Notes under the pieces: model-generated
Database searches by the model: none
What the model saw: the letters and a program-made list of their open reading frames with translations, nothing else
Told to the model about the DNA's origin: nothing
Assembly: GCF_021233415.1 (NCBI RefSeq)
Contig: NZ_CP089466.1
Coordinates: 620,001 to 684,000 of the forward strand
From: Halobacterium litoreum
GTDB lineage: Archaea; Halobacteriota; Halobacteria; Halobacteriales; Halobacteriaceae
Direction: 5' to 3'
Length of the DNA stretch: 64,000 nucleotides
Position numbers and translations under genes: made by a program
In this document: in pieces, positions 23,134 through 57,004 of the stretch
How positions within the stretch are numbered: position 1 is the stretch's first letter
Layout: each line of letters opens with the position of its first letter

Positions 23134-24003
23134 CTACAGCAGGTCCTCGATGTTGTCGGCGACCTCCTCGGGGGTGTCGCCGACCGGCACGCCCGCGTCG
23201 TTCAGGGCGTTGATTTTGGACTCCGCGGTGCCGGTGCCGCTGCCGGAGACGATGGCGCCCGCGTGGCCCATGCGCTTGCCCGGCGGCGCGGTGCGACCGG
23301 CGATGAAGCCGGCGACCGGCGTGTCCATGTTCTCGGCGATGAATCGGGCGGCCTCCTCCTCGTCCTCGCCGCCGATTTCGCCGCACATCACGACCGCGTC
23401 GGTGTCCTCGTCGGCCTCGAACAGTTCGAGGGCGTCGATGAAGTCCGTCCCGATGATGGGGTCGCCGCCGATGCCGATGGCGGTGGTCTGCCCGATGCCG
23501 CGGGACGTCAGCGAGTCCACGACCTGGTAGGTCAGGGTGCCCGACCGGGAGACGAGGCCGACGTTCCCGGCCTCGAAGATGTTGCCCGGCAGGATGCCGA
23601 GTTTGGCCTCGCCCGGCGTGATGATGCCCGGACAGTTCGGGCCGAGCAGGCGCGTGTCGACCTCCGAGAGGCGCTTGTTCACCTTCGCCATGTCCTGGGT
23701 CGGGATGCCCTCGGTGATGGCGACCACGAGGTCGAGGTCCGTGTCGAGGCCCTCGAAGACCGCGTCACCGGCGAACGCCGGCGGTACGAACACCACGGAG
23801 GCGTCCGCGTCCTCGGCGTCGACGGCCTGGTCGACGGTGTCGTAGACCGGGACGCCGGCGACCTCTTGGCCGCCCTTGCCGGGGACCGCACCGGCGACGA
23901 CGTTCGTCCCGTATTCGATCATCTGTTCGGCGTGGAACTTGCCCTCTCCGCCCGTGATGCCCTGCACCACGACGCGGGTGTCGTCGTCGACTAGAATGCT
24001 CAT
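23134..24003 (-). CDS. sucD: Succinyl-CoA synthetase (ADP-forming) alpha subunit
   Basis: This is the TCA-cycle subunit that binds CoA and carries the phosphorylated histidine. The product has 289 residues. [19 protein letters not shown] is the CoA-binding start, [20 protein letters not shown] follows, and the active-site His lies in [11 protein letters not shown]. The start ATG overlaps the sucC stop by four bases, so the subunits are co-translated. Confidence 0.96.
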
Positions 24004-25148
24004 TGGTCACCCTCCTCGTTGGCGTACTCGACGGTGCGCTGCACGGCGCCTTCGAGCGTCTCCTCGACGGTCACGAGGTCGTCGTTCAGAATCTCGCGGC
24101 CCTCGGCGGCGTTCGTCCCGGCGAGGCGGACGACCACCGGCTTCGGAATCTCGTCGAACTGTTCGAGCGCGGCGTTGATGCCCTTCGCGACCTCGTCCCC
24201 GCGCGTGATGCCGCCGAAGATGTTGAACACGACGGCGTCGACGTTCTCGTCGCTGAAGACCATGTCCAGCGCGTTCGTGACGCGCTCGGCCTTCGCGCCG
24301 CCGCCGATGTCGAGGAAGTTCGCGGGCTTCCCGCCGTAGTAGTCGACGAGGTCAAGCGTGGTCATGACGAGCCCGGCGCCGTTCCCGATGATGCCGACGT
24401 TGCCGTCGAGGCGCACGTAGTCGAAGCCGTAGTCGTTGGCCTTGGCTTCGAGTTCGTCCTCGGCGGCCTCCTCCTCCATGTCGGCGAAGTCGGGCTGTCG
24501 GAACAGCGCGTCCTCGTCGATCTTCATCACGGCGTCCGCGGCGACCGCCTCGCGGTCGCTCGTGATCATGACGGGGTTGATTTCGACTTCCGTGGCGTCG
24601 CTGTCGTCCCAGAGTTCGTAGACCGTCTGGACGATTTTCGCGACGTCGCCGGCGACGTCCTGGTCGATGCCCGCGTCGTAGACGGCCTTCCGGGCCTGGT
24701 ACGGGTGGAGACCGAACGCCGGGTCGACGTGCTCGCGGACGATGGCGTCCGGGTTCTCGTGGGCGACCTCCTCGATGTCGACGCCGCCCTGCTCGGACAC
24801 CATCACGACGGGTTCGCCCTCGCCGCGGTCCATCGTGACGCCGACGTACAGTTCGTTCGTGAAGTCCACCGCTTCCTCGACGAGAACCTTCTCGACGGTG
24901 TAGCCCTTGAGGTCCATGCCGAGGATGGACTCGGCGGCCTCGCGGACTTCCGACTCGTTCTCGGCGAGCTTGATGCCGCCGGCCTTCCCGCGGCCGCCGA
25001 CGTGTACCTGCGCCTTCACCGCGACGGGGTAGCCGAGGTCCTCGGCGGCCTCGACGACCTCGTCGACGGTAGTGGCGAGCGCCGACCCCGGGGTCGGGAG
25101 GCCCGCCTCGGCGAAGACCTGCTTCGCCTGATACTCGTGCAGTTTCAT
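24000..25148 (-). CDS. sucC: Succinyl-CoA synthetase (ADP-forming) beta subunit
   Basis: This is the nucleotide-binding and specificity subunit. The product has 382 residues with the ATP-grasp start [20 protein letters not shown], the [18 protein letters not shown] loop, [19 protein letters not shown], and the C-terminal [13 protein letters not shown] and [16 protein letters not shown]. It is the first gene of sucCD on this strand and overlaps sucD by four bases. Confidence 0.96.
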
Positions 25149-25202: not shown

Positions 25203-25865
25203 TCACGCCGCGCGGTAGCGGTAGTAGGAGTAGCCGACGGAGACGACAGCGGCGAGAACTGCCGGTGCGAGGACGAGTGCGAGCGCGTAGTCGGGGGCGA
25301 GCGCGCCGGCCGCCGCGACGACGCCGCCGACTTCGAAGACGCGCGCGACGACGCGGTTGGTGTCTCGCCAGACGCCCTCGTCTTCGAGGGTCCACGGCGT
25401 GCGCACGCCGACGAACCAGTTCTGGTCGGTGCGTTCGGTGACGACACCGGCGACGACGTAGATGGCGCCGATGGCGGGCGCCATCGCCTGCAGCACGCTG
25501 ATTTCGACGCCCGCGTTGACGGCGACGACCACGGCGTTCACGTACGCGAGGAAGCCGACGGTCGCGAGCGCGAGCGCGTCGTACGCGAACCGGAAGTCGG
25601 CGGAGTTGTCACGAGGGTCGATTCGCGGCAGGACGGCGAAGAGGCCGAGCACGAGAGCGGCGATTGCGGGCAACAGCGCGAGGCCGAGTTCGCGGGACAT
25701 CGTGCCGTCCGCTTGGCCGGCGGCGTTCTAGTGGGTCGCCATCCGCGCGGGCATCTCCGGGTACGCGAGGGCGCTCACCGCGGCCGAGGCGGCGACGAGC
25801 GCGCCGCCGCCCAGCAGGAGGCGTCGGTTCGGGTTCACGTTCGAGACTCTGTCGTCCCCCGACAT
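25203..25865 (-). pseudogene. SdpI-family membrane protein interrupted by an in-frame TAG
   Basis: Read from ATG 25865, the first 45 codons give a membrane segment and then YPEMPARMATH, the start of the DUF1648 motif. A TAG codon at 25730-25728 follows and the same frame continues NAAGQADGTMSREL into a 165-residue downstream part. DUF1648 normally has an aromatic residue at the stop position (H-W/F-N-x-x-G-x-x-D), so a single TGG-to-TAG change explains the break. The downstream part ends with the SdpI signature NWFVGVRTPWTLEDEGVWRDTNR in pieces (VGVRTPWTL, VWRDTNR) and four to five helices, and could be made alone from ATG 25700. Readthrough or sequencing error are alternatives. Confidence 0.75.
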
Positions 25866-25935: not shown

Positions 25936-26640
25936 ATGCACGCCGACTTCGACTTCGACGGCGACGTGGTGCTCGTGACCGGTGCGTCGGGCGCGCTCGG
26001 GAGCGCGGTCTGCCGGGCGTTCGGCGACGCGGGCGCCACCGTCTGCGGGACCGACGTGGTGGAACCGAGCGAAGACACCGAACTCGACCGCGGCGAGGTC
26101 TCCTTCTACCGCGGCGACCTGACCGACGAGACGCAGGCCGAACACGTCGTCTCCGGCGTCGTCGACGCCCACGGCGGCCTCGACGCGCTCTGCAATATCG
26201 CGGGAATGTGGAAGGGCGGGTCACCCATCGAGGAGACCGACGTGGAGACCTTCGAGCAGGTGTTCGACGTGAACCTCAAGACGATGTTCCTCGCGACCAA
26301 GCACGCGCTCCCACACCTGCGGGAGTCCGGCGGGAACGTCGTCTCCGTGTCGGCGCGCGCGAGCCTGGAGGGCGGCGAGGGCGACGGCCCGTACCGCGCC
26401 GCGAAGGCCGGCGTCCGCCTGCTCACCGAGACTGTCGCCGAGGAGAACAAGGGCGAGGTGCGCGCGAACGCCGTGCTGCCGTCGGTCATCGACACGCCCC
26501 AGAACCGCGAGATGCTGCCGGACGCCGAACACGATTCGTGGGTCGACCCCGCGGATATCGCGCGCGTCGCGATGGCGCTCTGTTCGGACGCGACGGTGCC
26601 GACGAGCGGCGGCGCCATCCCGGTCTACGGCGAAGCGTGA
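25936..26640 (+). CDS. Short-chain dehydrogenase/reductase
   Basis: The product has 234 residues with a Rossmann fold. The cofactor motif is VTGASGALGSAVCRAFG, an NIAG in place of NNAG follows, and the catalytic YxxxK is YRAAK with the serine in VVSVSARAS. ATG 25936 gives the right N-terminus; an upstream in-frame start adds a Gly-rich segment. The acidic Asp after the second strand (GTDVVEPS) suggests NAD(H) preference. The substrate is unknown. It stands alone between the broken SdpI gene and the transporter pair. Confidence 0.85.
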   Translation: MHADFDFDGDVVLVTGASGALGSAVCRAFGDAGATVCGTDVVEPSEDTELDRGEVSFYRGDLTDETQAEHVVSGVVDAHGGLDALCNIAGMWKGGSPIEETDVETFEQVFDVNLKTMFLATKHALPHLRESGGNVVSVSARASLEGGEGDGPYRAAKAGVRLLTETVAEENKGEVRANAVLPSVIDTPQNREMLPDAEHDSWVDPADIARVAMALCSDATVPTSGGAIPVYGEA

Positions 26641-52795: not shown

Positions 52796-53023
52796 ATGAG
52801 TCAGTCCCAGCCTCTCTCGTGCGCGGCGAAACTCGCGCGCGTCGTGCTGGACAACTGCGGCCCGCTCTCCGCCGAGGAAGTGGCCGACGAGGGACGCCTC
52901 TCGGAAGCCCAAGCCCGCGACGCGCTCGAAGAACTCGACGACGCGGGCCTCGCGGACTGCGTCTGCGGGCTCTGCCCGACCAAGCAGGAAGTGTACGCCC
53001 TCACCGACGAGGACGGGGCGTAA
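52796..53023 (+). CDS. Small winged-helix regulator, MarR-like
   Basis: The product has 75 residues. AAKLARVVLDNCGPLSAEEV, then GRLSEAQARDALEELDDAGL and a wing CVCGLCPTKQEVYALT form a minimal winged helix. Three cysteines in CVCGLC could bind metal or respond to oxidation. It stands at the edge of the accessory patch, but its base composition matches the chromosome. Confidence 0.6.
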   Translation: MSQSQPLSCAAKLARVVLDNCGPLSAEEVADEGRLSEAQARDALEELDDAGLADCVCGLCPTKQEVYALTDEDGA

Positions 53024-53181
53024 CCCTCTTTCTCCGCGGCCCCCAACAGCACGTTGCGCGCCGTTAGTCCCCGACCGAGTCTGTCCACTCGGACGCGATG
53101 ACCGCTCGGAGAACCCCGGCGTGCGACATCCGGTCGGCTCAGCCGGCCCGCGCCCGCGGTCGCGTCGTCACCGCGAACTGA

Positions 53182-53281
53182 GAGACGGCTCGCGCCGTCT
53201 CGTCATCCGGTGCTCGCTTCGCGAGCGCCCGACTCGCCGGCTACCGCCGGCTCGTCAATTGGGGAGTCTGATGGACTCCCC
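53182..53281 (+). other. Four consecutive perfect hairpins in a gene-free interval
   Basis: Stems: GAGACGGC/GCCGTCTC with loop TCGC (53182-53201), GCTCGC/GCGAGC with loop TTC (53212-53226), GCCGGC/GCCGGC with loop TACC (53236-53251) and GGGGAGTC/GACTCCCC with loop TGATG (53261-53281). The surrounding 53024-53437 has no gene. The density suggests a structured RNA or a processed transcript; SRP and RNase P RNA signatures were not seen. Confidence 0.5.
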
Positions 53282-53341
53282 CGCCCGCCACGAGGGTTTC
53301 CCGGCCGACGCGGCACGCCGCCACGGGATGAGGCCGGTCGT

Positions 53342-53360
53342 TAGTGTCGCGGGCGCACAC
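53342..53360 (+). repeat. Accessory-patch border repeat R1
   Basis: TAGTGTCGCGGGCGCACAC; the first 18 bases are identical to part of R2 at 54237-54254. It lies 78 bases before the UPF0175 antitoxin gene, at the upstream edge of the patch. Confidence 0.65.
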
Positions 53361-53437
53361 TGAGGCCTTCCAGCGCCCGCTGTGTTCTGTTTCGGATTAG
53401 CCAAACACTCAAGAATCACCTGCGCCTATCTCCCGCC

Positions 53438-53683
53438 ATGGCGACGATCGAAATCGACGACGACGTCTACGAGGCGTTACAGCTCCCGGAAGCGGAGCGG
53501 TCGTCTGCGATGAAGCGAGAGTTGGCGGTCTCGCTGTACGCCCGTGACGTTCTCTCGTTCGGGAAGGCGCGCGCCCTGGCCGGGCTGTCGAAGCGGGAGT
53601 TCCAGCGCCTGCTCGGCGAGCGTGAGATTCCCCGCCACTACGGCGAACGGGAACTCGAAGAAGACATCGAATATGCCGAATAG
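53438..53683 (+). CDS. UPF0175-family antitoxin
   Basis: The product has 81 residues. ATIEIDDDVYEALQLPE, SLYARDVLSFGKARALAGLS and KREFQRLLGEREIPRHYGE match UPF0175, an HTH-bearing antitoxin. The 3' end overlaps a DUF3368 toxin gene by 11 bases. A TATA-like GGATTAGC at about 53394-53401 precedes it. Confidence 0.85.
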   Translation: MATIEIDDDVYEALQLPEAERSSAMKRELAVSLYARDVLSFGKARALAGLSKREFQRLLGEREIPRHYGERELEEDIEYAE

Positions 53684-54161
53684 CCGGCTGGTCGTCTCGG
53701 ACACGTCCCCGTTGTTGAACCTCGCACTCATCGACCGACTCGGCCTCCTCGAAGCCCAGTTCTCGGAAGTTACGGTTCCACAGCAGGTCTGGGACGAGCT
53801 TACCGACGGGGAGGATGGACTGGAGGCGCTCCGTGCGTTGCGCGACGACGGATTTCTACACCTCGTCGAGGTGGAACGCTCGGACTTGTTCGTGGAGCTC
53901 TTCCACGAACTCGACCTCGGTGAAACGGCGGCAATCTGTTATGCCGTCGAGGAGGACGCTAACTTCGTTTTGCTCGACGAGCGAGACGGACGACGCGTCG
54001 CCCGCAGACACGACTTGGACGTCACGGGCGTAATCGGAATTCTCCTTCGCGGAGCGAACACTGGGTCGATCGACTTGAAACACGAACTGGACGCCCTCCG
54101 CGAAGCGGGATTCTGGATTTCCGACGACCTCTACGAACGGGTTCTCTCCGAAGCCAGATAG
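53673..54161 (+). CDS. DUF3368 PIN-like toxin
   Basis: The product has 162 residues. The PIN acidic residues lie in LVVSDTSPLLNLALIDRL (Asp10), LDLGETAAICYAVE and VLLDERDGRRVA. DUF3368 proteins are predicted ribonuclease toxins paired with UPF0175. ATG 53673 overlaps the antitoxin gene. The gene appears intact, unlike the neighbouring PemK toxin. Confidence 0.85.
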   Translation: MPNSRLVVSDTSPLLNLALIDRLGLLEAQFSEVTVPQQVWDELTDGEDGLEALRALRDDGFLHLVEVERSDLFVELFHELDLGETAAICYAVEEDANFVLLDERDGRRVARRHDLDVTGVIGILLRGANTGSIDLKHELDALREAGFWISDDLYERVLSEAR

Positions 54162-54210
54162 TCGTCCTCCTGCGAATAGGTTGCCACAGGTATCCGACTC
54201 CACGTCCGCC

Positions 54211-54255
54211 GAGCCTACTAGTAGATTCTCGCCCGGTAGTGTCGCGGGCGCACAT
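54211..54255 (+). repeat. Accessory-patch border repeat R2
   Basis: The 45-base repeat matches R3 at 38 of 45 positions and R1 over 18 bases. It contains ACTAGTAG and a hairpin CGCCCG-(9)-CGGGCG. It lies between the DUF3368 toxin stop and the 3' end of the PemK pseudogene. Confidence 0.75.
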
Positions 54256-54259
54256 TCCA

Positions 54260-54588
54260 TCACCGTAGATACGTCTCTATCTCGTCGACGACGCTATCGA
54301 CAAACGCATCCGTGACTCGACCCTGCCAGGCAATCAGGTCCTCAATCCGTGGTGAGTGGACTGCCCACGGAGAAACGAACGAACGCTGTGGAACACACCA
54401 ACGTCCCAGTTGTCTGAACTCATTACAAGTGAATCCCGGTACTCTTTGGTCGATACTGCGACAGCGAGGAACTGCTCGTCGTTGAACGGGTGGGACTCAT
54501 TGTTGACGATCAGCCACGGTCGCTGGCTGTCCTCGCCTAGCTTGAACGGGTCGGAACTCCGGACAACGTCGCCTCGTTCCGGCTGCAT
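54260..54588 (-). pseudogene. PemK/MazF-family toxin, frameshifted
   Basis: ATG 54588 opens QPERGDVVRSSDPFKLGEDS, QRPWLIVNNESHPFNDEQF and VAVSTKEYRDSL, the N-terminal half of a haloarchaeal PemK/MazF toxin, but the frame turns into unrelated sequence and stops at 54334. Shifting frame near 54393-54401 restores VPQRSFVSPWAVHSPRIEDL and IAWQGRVTDAF to a stop at 54260. Loss of one G in GGTGGTGTT explains the break. The product would lack the C-terminal half and is probably inactive. It directly follows the wHTH partner gene. Confidence 0.85.
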
Positions 54589-54951
54589 CTATTCGTCCCG
54601 CTCGCTGGGGTGAGGTTCGTCCGGCGCGACTGCGTCCCACTCGTCTGGGTCAATGCCGTCATCGTCTTCGTTGAGCCGTTCAGTGACGTCGTGGAGTCGG
54701 TACGCATCCTTCACTCGATCGAGATCATCCGTTATTGCCCAGTACTCGCCGCGGTGACGGACGAGCTCACGTTCTTTCAGGCGAGAGAGTGCTGTCCCAA
54801 CCGTGTTCGGGTCTTCGTCGATTCCGGTAGCGATTTCCGAACGAGTGAATGCGTGATCCTGGTGCGAATAGAGGTACGTGAGTACCTGTTCCGGGACGCT
54901 CGGGTTGTTCGGGAGGTCGTCGGCCTCGAACGCCTCGATTCGAACGGGCAT
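54589..54951 (-). CDS. Winged-helix partner (antitoxin/regulator) of the PemK toxin
   Basis: The product has 120 residues from the ATG giving MPVRIEAFEADDLPNNPSVP. A winged helix covers LTYLYSHQDHAFTRSEIATG, then NTVGTALSRLKERELVRHRG with wing EYWAITDD, and the C-terminus is very acidic. Its stop directly abuts the toxin ATG. Haloarchaeal PemK toxins commonly have such a MarR-like neighbour. With the toxin frameshifted it may remain as an orphan antitoxin. Confidence 0.75.
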   Translation of the reverse strand: MPVRIEAFEADDLPNNPSVPEQVLTYLYSHQDHAFTRSEIATGIDEDPNTVGTALSRLKERELVRHRGEYWAITDDLDRVKDAYRLHDVTERLNEDDDGIDPDEWDAVAPDEPHPSERDE

Positions 54952-55054
54952 GTGTTGTACTTGGTGTGCTTCCGTAATCAATGTACTGTCGTACTCGACG
55001 TGCCGGTAGAGTCCACAGGATACTACGCCAGATACGAACACCGCCCTTCTCATC

Positions 55055-55100
55055 GAGTCTACTAGTAGAAATTCGCCCGGTAGTGTCGCGGTCGTACACA
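55055..55100 (+). repeat. Accessory-patch border repeat R3
   Basis: The copy is 38/45 identical to R2, with ACTAGTAG and the hairpin core CGCCCGG...CGGTCG. It lies upstream of the wHTH gene and before the PQQ-propeller gene, so R2 and R3 bracket the PemK module. Confidence 0.75.
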
Positions 55101-55295
55101 TCGAAACTCCCCCGAATCGACGGCTATCTGGCCTCTCGCGCGTCACGAAATTGCTGAAATCGGAGCCAAATGTGCTCACGCATCGCTACGTACAGAAGAT
55201 GTATTCTGCAGCCTGGCACCCAGCGACCAGCAATTTTCAAGCGATGATTTAGTCTAACCAAATAGTATTATGGCTGGCTATACCAAATTCGTCCA

Positions 55296-56474
55296 ATGCC
55301 CTCTAGACGCCGCTTCCTGACCACCACCGGTGCTGCCGCTTTTGCTGGTTTGGCTGGCTGTATGGGTGGTGTTCGTGACTACTTCGAGAACGATACCACT
55401 GTGGAGGGCCCTTGTGACGATTCACCCGCTACGTGGCCAACCGCTGGGGGTGATTCCGGTCGCACCGGCCAAACTGATACCGCTCCCCCGGCTCCCGACG
55501 CCGACGCTGTCGATATCCTCGCGGGCATCCACGAGAACGGACGCCGACAATTCGCCGCCGCACTCCCAACCGTCGCAAACGGGACAGCATACGTTCCGGT
55601 GACTAGTGGACTCATCGCGGTCGACCTCCAGTCCCCACTGGACGGGGCGCGCTGGAAGTACGACCTCGACGACCAGACTAAGGCAGTGCCACTGATTACT
55701 TGTGGGCTCGCCTTTGTCCCCGGACTGAATCGTCTGGACGCTCTAGATCAGAGGACTGGCGACCGGTACTGGCGTCTTGATGACGGGAGTCGAGAGGCCA
55801 CGTCCGTCGCGTCGCGTGGTGAAACCATCTTCCTTGCTGGGCCGTCTCTGATTGCAATCGACATGCGGACCGGAGACCGCCTGTGGAGTGCTGATGGTGG
55901 TGACACGCTCGCGCTCGACGATGCGGGCGTCTACAGCACGAGAAACGCCAACGGGACTGGTGACATCTACGCCCACGATTTAGACGGCGAGCAGCGGTGG
56001 CATCTCTCCCTCGGGAAGATCGTCGGGTCGGCCTCCGTTCAGGAGGGGACGGTCTGGGTTGCGGACAATCGGGTAACGGTTTACGCGATTGACGCTCGAA
56101 GCGGGGAGACGTTCTGGTCGCGGTCGCTCGATGGCGTCGAGAAGATTCACTCCGGTCTCGCCGTCCGTGGCGATGACGTGGTCGTCCCTGCAGGTATGGG
56201 CAGTACGAGTTTCGTCCTCGACGCAGCGACCGGTGAGACACGCTGGGAGCGGGATACCGGGATGGTTACTGGCCGTCCGGTCATCGGTGATGATTGGGTC
56301 GCGCTTGGCCGGACGAACACCGGGGTCACGCTCTACGACCGAGGGGCGGGCGACCAGCGAACGACCTGGTCACGCGAGGAGTACGGACTGGGGACGATCG
56401 ATGGTCTCGTCGCGGTTGAAGAGGGGTTCGTGGTTCGCGGCGGAACGAACTCGGGACTAACGCTGATCCGGTGA
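55296..56474 (+). CDS. PQQ-type beta-propeller lipoprotein
   Basis: The product has 392 residues. SRRRFLTTTGAAAFAGLAG and a Cys give a Tat lipoprotein signal. The remainder is built of WD-like PQQ repeats, recognisable as ALDQRTGDRYWRLDDGS, AIDMRTGDRLWSADGG, AIDARSGETFWSRSLDG and LDAATGETRWERDTG. About six to seven blades are likely. Such proteins act as extracellular scaffolds or redox-cofactor domains; no PQQ-dehydrogenase active-site residues are obvious. GC content is lower than in flanking core genes. Confidence 0.82.
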   Translation: MPSRRRFLTTTGAAAFAGLAGCMGGVRDYFENDTTVEGPCDDSPATWPTAGGDSGRTGQTDTAPPAPDADAVDILAGIHENGRRQFAAALPTVANGTAYVPVTSGLIAVDLQSPLDGARWKYDLDDQTKAVPLITCGLAFVPGLNRLDALDQRTGDRYWRLDDGSREATSVASRGETIFLAGPSLIAIDMRTGDRLWSADGGDTLALDDAGVYSTRNANGTGDIYAHDLDGEQRWHLSLGKIVGSASVQEGTVWVADNRVTVYAIDARSGETFWSRSLDGVEKIHSGLAVRGDDVVVPAGMGSTSFVLDAATGETRWERDTGMVTGRPVIGDDWVALGRTNTGVTLYDRGAGDQRTTWSREEYGLGTIDGLVAVEEGFVVRGGTNSGLTLIR

Positions 56475-56483
56475 GCGATGTAG

Positions 56484-56765
56484 GCGAATTATCTGTCGGC
56501 ATCGCTACGAAACGCTTTCGGCGATCTACCCATTAGTACAGGTATTTCCACGGTAGTCGCAACACCCGACGCGGACGAGACATGTGCGTACTGTGAGTCG
56601 CGAATCTTCGACCACGATCCAATCTGTGTCCGTGACTGTGACGAGGACTGTGGGTCGCCTGTTTACTTTTGTAACTACGCCTGTCTCTCGGCGTACATAG
56701 ACGAGAATAGCCTCACGACGGGCGATGCATGTGAGTGGAAGCCTGACGAAAGCGGCTGTTGCTAA
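56484..56765 (+). pseudogene. Cysteine-rich zinc-binding ORF without a start codon
   Basis: The open frame ends with 60 codons containing ten cysteines: TCAYCESRIFDHDPICVRDC, then GSPVYFCNYACLSAYIDE and a final SGCC. The spacing CxxC ... FCxxxC...Y resembles small TRASH/zinc-finger proteins. No ATG, GTG or TTG exists in frame between the upstream stop at 56481 and the first cysteine, so the gene has lost its start or uses an unusual one. Amino-acid patterning is too ordered to be chance. Confidence 0.55.
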
Positions 56766-56940
56766 TTGGGTATCTCGGTAGGTTCGAAGGAATCCTTGTC
56801 GTTGAGTACGCGCATAACACATGGAAATTCACTCTCGCCGGTGAGACTCACGAGTACCCTCTTCTGTGACACTGCCAGAGAACTACTCGGCGAGCGGGTC
56901 TTGTACTGAGCACCGTACTCTACTGTGGCTACTGTGAACT

Positions 56941-56971
56941 CTCGCCCGGACGTGTCCCGGGCGACACTTCC
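56941..56971 (+). repeat. Accessory-patch border repeat R4
   Basis: CTCGCCCGGACGTGTCCCGG followed by GCGACACTTCC aligns with the right half of R2 with small indels. It forms a perfect CGCCCGG/CCGGGCG stem. It lies at the downstream edge of the AT-richer patch, beside the truncated lipoprotein gene. Confidence 0.5.
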
Positions 56972-57004
56972 GTCAACCGCGCTGTCATCGTTTCAGTCGC
57001 CTGC

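What the first reader, a model, noticed from the sequence alone, without database searches (positions are those of the whole stretch)
25203..25865. SdpI-family gene cut by an in-frame amber codon exactly where DUF1648 has an aromatic residue
Seen: ATH-TAG-NAAGQADG in one uninterrupted frame with the domain continuing on both sides. Known: DUF1648 keeps H-W/F-N at this point, and TGG-to-TAG is one base. Inference: recent nonsense mutation, or two separately made halves with restart at ATG 25700 directly after the stop.
Basis: seen in the sequence. Interest (0 to 1): 0.6.

Follow-up and report, generated by a model that had tools for sequence, protein, structure and literature searches.

The report
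Membrane protein gene recently broken
A salt-loving archaeon (genus Halobacterium) carries a known kind of membrane protein gene with one premature stop codon, where every close relative has tryptophan; it looks like ordinary recent gene loss (or a single-base sequencing error), not a special decoding trick.

Summary
On the minus strand, 25865..25203, one open frame of 221 codons holds a single TAG at codon 46 (25730..25728), inside DUF1648 and upstream of an SdpI domain. Of 26 aligned relatives, 25 have Trp there and one remote relative has Phe; the ten closest all use TGG. None of 117 other homologous places in the order was found with a stop there. The rest of the gene has no frameshift and normal composition. 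At 40 columns invariant in ten relatives, the Trp is the only change. dN/dS to genus-mates is not raised. The gene is dispensable: 6 of 12 other genomes of the genus lack it beside a retained sucC. Another haloarchaeon has an independently decayed copy. I found no tRNA-CUA and no PylS, and TAG ends about a third of the coding-like ORFs in the window. The ATG at 25700 is a conserved internal Met of the DUF1648 motif, not a start site in relatives. Best reading: a recent nonsense mutation that abolishes the full-length product, an early pseudogene. A base-call error cannot be excluded without reads or a second strain. Interest is low.

The parts
25203..25865 (-). SdpI/DUF1648 family gene, 221 codons, with one in-frame stop (early pseudogene)
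   Evidence: Translation, Pfam, genus homologues 64-69% identical
25728..25730 (-). in-frame TAG at codon 46, in place of TGG (Trp) of relatives
25659..25799 (-). DUF1648 domain interrupted by the TAG
   Evidence: PF07853 match read through the stop, residues 23-69; genome search hit G000:C1:645659-645799
25227..25427 (-). SdpI domain downstream of the stop
   Evidence: PF13630 residues 147-213
25698..25700 (-). ATG proposed as restart; in relatives an internal conserved Met of the DUF1648 motif
24000..25148 (-). sucC-like gene next downstream; the SdpI gene precedes sucC in all genus-mates that hold it
   Evidence: the name succinyl-CoA ligase rests on my reading of the sequence
25936..26640 (+). 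divergent SDR-type oxidoreductase gene; a neighbour kept in genus-mates with and without the SdpI gene
   Evidence: family name from the sequence, not tested with a library

Best explanation
A chromosomal SdpI-family (DUF1648 + SdpI) membrane-protein gene of a Halobacterium species has recently taken a single nonsense change (TGG to TAG) at a nearly invariant Trp. Translation should end after 45 residues, so the full-length protein with six predicted membrane segments is not made. The gene is at the first step of pseudogenisation in a genus that often loses it altogether. Shown: the stop, the Trp in relatives, absence of other lesions, the losses in the genus. Inferred: that the base is real and that no functional product is made.
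For: Single TAG in an otherwise intact frame. Trp in 25 of 26 aligned relatives, TGG in all ten closest. Of 117 other homologous places in the order, none was found with a stop at the site; G099's flagged TAG lies upstream of its start, and G193's lies elsewhere in an independently decayed copy that keeps the Trp. Of 40 columns invariant in ten relatives only the Trp changed; pairwise dN/dS with genus-mates is 0.38-0.50, against 0.20-0.52 among the intact copies, so decay is young: with no hit in the other 39 invariant codons, roughly under 0.035 neutral changes per site against pairwise dS of 0.52-0.70. Six of 12 genus-mates lack the gene beside a retained sucC, and the sucC tree needs about four changes, so it is dispensable. 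TAG ends 15 of 47 coding-like ORFs in the window. No PylS above cut-off and no tRNA-CUA found.
Against: No second strain of the species and no reads were available, so a base-call error would look the same. Nearly unmutated flanks also fit a gene still in use through some unknown means.
Confidence: 0.8

Rival explanations
1. The TAG is a base-call or assembly error (or a variant fixed in the sequenced culture); the natural gene reads TGG and is intact.
For: It is a single substitution in an otherwise clean, normally evolving gene; it creates CTAG, a word about eight-fold depleted in the window (23 seen, 187 expected from base composition).
Against: The assembly is good (2 contigs, 99.4% complete) and the neighbouring genes are open; substitution errors are rare in finished assemblies (general knowledge).
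Confidence: 0.1
2. The gene now works as two pieces: a 45-residue N-terminal peptide and a 165-residue protein restarted at ATG 25700.
For: An ATG in frame lies 27 bases after the stop, and the SdpI domain is whole in the second piece.
Against: The Met is an internal conserved residue in relatives; only a GGA at -10 resembles a ribosome-binding site, and leaderless initiation, common in haloarchaea (general knowledge), cannot serve an internal start; the piece would have five instead of six predicted membrane segments.
Confidence: 0.06
3. The TAG is read through (suppressor tRNA, pyrrolysine or programmed readthrough) and the full protein is made.
For: The downstream part is conserved.
Against: No PylS above the cut-off (the weak 20.8-bit hit rings in nearly all control genomes); no tRNA-CUA among 41 tRNA hits or pattern hits; a tRNA-Trp with CCA anticodon is present; TAG is a common terminator; relatives have Trp, so there is no conserved recoding site; a review knows archaeal readthrough only for Sec and Pyl (PMC8211752).
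Confidence: 0.04

Closest known systems
SdpI/YfhL family (PF13630) with DUF1648 (PF07853), e.g. Bacillus subtilis SdpI
   Same: Both domains in one polytopic membrane protein
   Different: Stop at codon 46; next to sucC and an SDR gene, with no sdpR-like gene beside it; B. subtilis SdpI is the immunity protein and receptor of the sdpRI operon (PMC1626106), a function untested in haloarchaea
Intact syntenic orthologues in Halobacterium (e.g. strains KA-4, TGN-42-S1, H. bonnevillei PCN9)
   Same: 64-69% identity, same place before sucC
   Different: Trp (TGG) instead of TAG; full-length frame
Haloarchaeal pseudogenes in general
   Same: Decayed genes are common, e.g. over 300 pseudogenes in Haloquadratum walsbyi (PMC3119063); G193 carries a decayed copy of this same family
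   Different: Here a single fresh lesion

Membership tests
SdpI family | SdpI domain PF13630 above cut-off | tested here: met
   57.2 bits against cut-off 28.2
SdpI family | DUF1648 PF07853 N-terminal domain | tested here: met
   51.9 bits against 28.7 when read through the stop; not found in the piece starting at 25700
SdpI family | sdpR autorepressor in the same operon (B. subtilis type) | tested here: not met
   Neighbours are a sucC-like gene and a divergent SDR-like gene, judged from the sequences
SdpI family | immunity or signalling function | not testable with these tools
   needs experiment
Pseudogene by nonsense mutation | in-frame stop within a conserved domain, intact orthologues elsewhere | tested here: met
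Pseudogene by nonsense mutation | relaxed selection after the lesion | tested here: inconclusive
   dN/dS not raised; lesion too young to show
Amber recoding (pyrrolysine) | PylS present | tested here: not met
   only 20.8 bits against cut-off 178, as weakly as in nearly all control genomes
Amber recoding (pyrrolysine or suppressor) | tRNA with CUA anticodon | tested here: not met
   none found; the tRNA list lacks some expected genes (Pro, Tyr), so not a complete exclusion

The most novel reading that the evidence does not exclude
A haloarchaeal SdpI-family protein newly split into a short N-terminal membrane peptide and a five-segment C-terminal protein, both made and working together, or a full-length protein made by amber readthrough.
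Probability: 0.06. Interest if true: 0.5.

Novelty: already known. Interest (0 to 1): 0.1.

Why it matters
Little beyond annotation: it should be labelled a nonsense pseudogene (or a site to resequence) rather than a 165-residue protein starting at 25700, which an automatic gene caller would be likely to predict. It adds one case to the frequent loss of this SdpI-family gene in Halobacterium.

Tried and rejected
A first genome-contig scan with the C-terminal half found nothing. Other flagged stops: G099's TAG is upstream of its start codon and G193's is elsewhere in a frameshifted copy, so the site is not recurrent. L023 and L027 show TAGs far from the site in remote, short homologues, not followed further. 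A first alignment used unturned loci and was discarded. A codon-usage scan for other interrupted frames in the window did not even recover this site, so nothing is concluded from it. Literature searches gave no paper on this gene in haloarchaea.

Full report
Observation. The minus-strand frame 25865..25203 is 221 codons long, with one internal TAG at codon 46 (25730..25728) and a terminal TGA. Read through, DUF1648 spans residues 23-69 across the stop and SdpI covers 147-213. The genome (2.7 Mb, 2 contigs, 99.4% complete) has no other DUF1648 match. The genus is Halobacterium, judged from the contigs of genus-mates, whose lengths match named Halobacterium records.

Relatives. Of 59 related genomes, 25 (the window's own included) hold a match. 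In the alignment of 26 other loci the stop column is Trp in 25 and Phe in one remote sequence; the ten closest of those compared by codon all have CAC-TGG-AAC, where the window has CAC-TAG-AAC. In 392 genomes of the order there are 118 homologous places including this one. Only two others are flagged with a stop: in G099 it is upstream of the start codon, and in G193 it lies elsewhere in a copy that is also frameshifted and keeps the Trp. The stop is therefore private to this genome among those searched.

Age and selection. Pairwise dN/dS against six genus-mates is 0.38-0.50, against 0.20-0.52 among the intact copies; the part after the stop behaves like the part before it. Of 40 columns invariant in ten relatives, the Trp is the only one changed. 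No hit in 39 other invariant codons puts a rough upper limit of 0.035 neutral changes per site on the time since loss, small against a dS of 0.52 or more to the nearest holders. Third-position G+C is 0.96 before and 0.90 after the stop, both normal here. The lesion is thus recent, or is an error of sequencing; I cannot separate these without reads.

Dispensability. All 13 genomes of the genus have sucC; seven, the window included, have the SdpI gene just upstream of it. The other six lack it, and there an SDR or an SNF-type transporter gene stands upstream of sucC instead. On a sucC tree presence and absence need about four changes, and the nearest genome, G007, lacks the gene. Loss is common, so a fresh nonsense mutation is unremarkable.

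Restart. ATG 25700 is 27 bases after the stop. In relatives it is the Met of DGTMS inside DUF1648, in the middle of a longer protein. Only GGA at -10 resembles a Shine-Dalgarno site. Hydropathy suggests six membrane segments in the whole protein, the first before the stop, so a restarted protein would have five and lose DUF1648 as recognised by Pfam. Restart is possible but nothing favours it.

Readthrough. PylS gives only a sub-threshold match that nearly all control genomes also give. The 41 tRNA genes above the cut-off hold no CUA anticodon among those ARAGORN read; the one it could not read (L079) looks to me like an intron-bearing tRNA-Met. A pattern for CTA anticodons followed by a T arm gave eight places, none at a tRNA; the same pattern with GTT finds tRNA-Asn. 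The start of a tRNA-Trp with CCA anticodon was found. The tRNA list lacks Pro and Tyr, so it is not complete. TAG ends 15 of 47 coding-like ORFs in the window. A review lists archaeal readthrough only for selenocysteine and pyrrolysine (PMC8211752).

Known context. B. subtilis SdpI is the immunity protein and receptor against SdpC (PMC1626106). Whether haloarchaeal members do anything similar is unknown; no sdpR-like neighbour was seen here.

Verdict. A recent nonsense mutation in a dispensable known-family gene is most likely (0.8), a sequencing error next (0.1), two working pieces (0.06) or readthrough (0.04) least.

Noticed in passing
window, whole: The tetranucleotide CTAG is strongly under-represented (23 seen, about 187 expected from base composition); the premature stop creates one.
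   Followed up: partly
L074 (G193:C1:3325971-3327860): A second haloarchaeon carries an independently decayed SdpI/DUF1648 gene (internal TAG plus a frameshift) that keeps the Trp.
   Followed up: partly
window 53000-57000: A stretch of lower G+C (about 58-65% against about 70%) with a PIN-like small protein and a lipoprotein that looks like a PQQ-repeat protein; possibly acquired DNA (names from reading the sequence).
   Followed up: no
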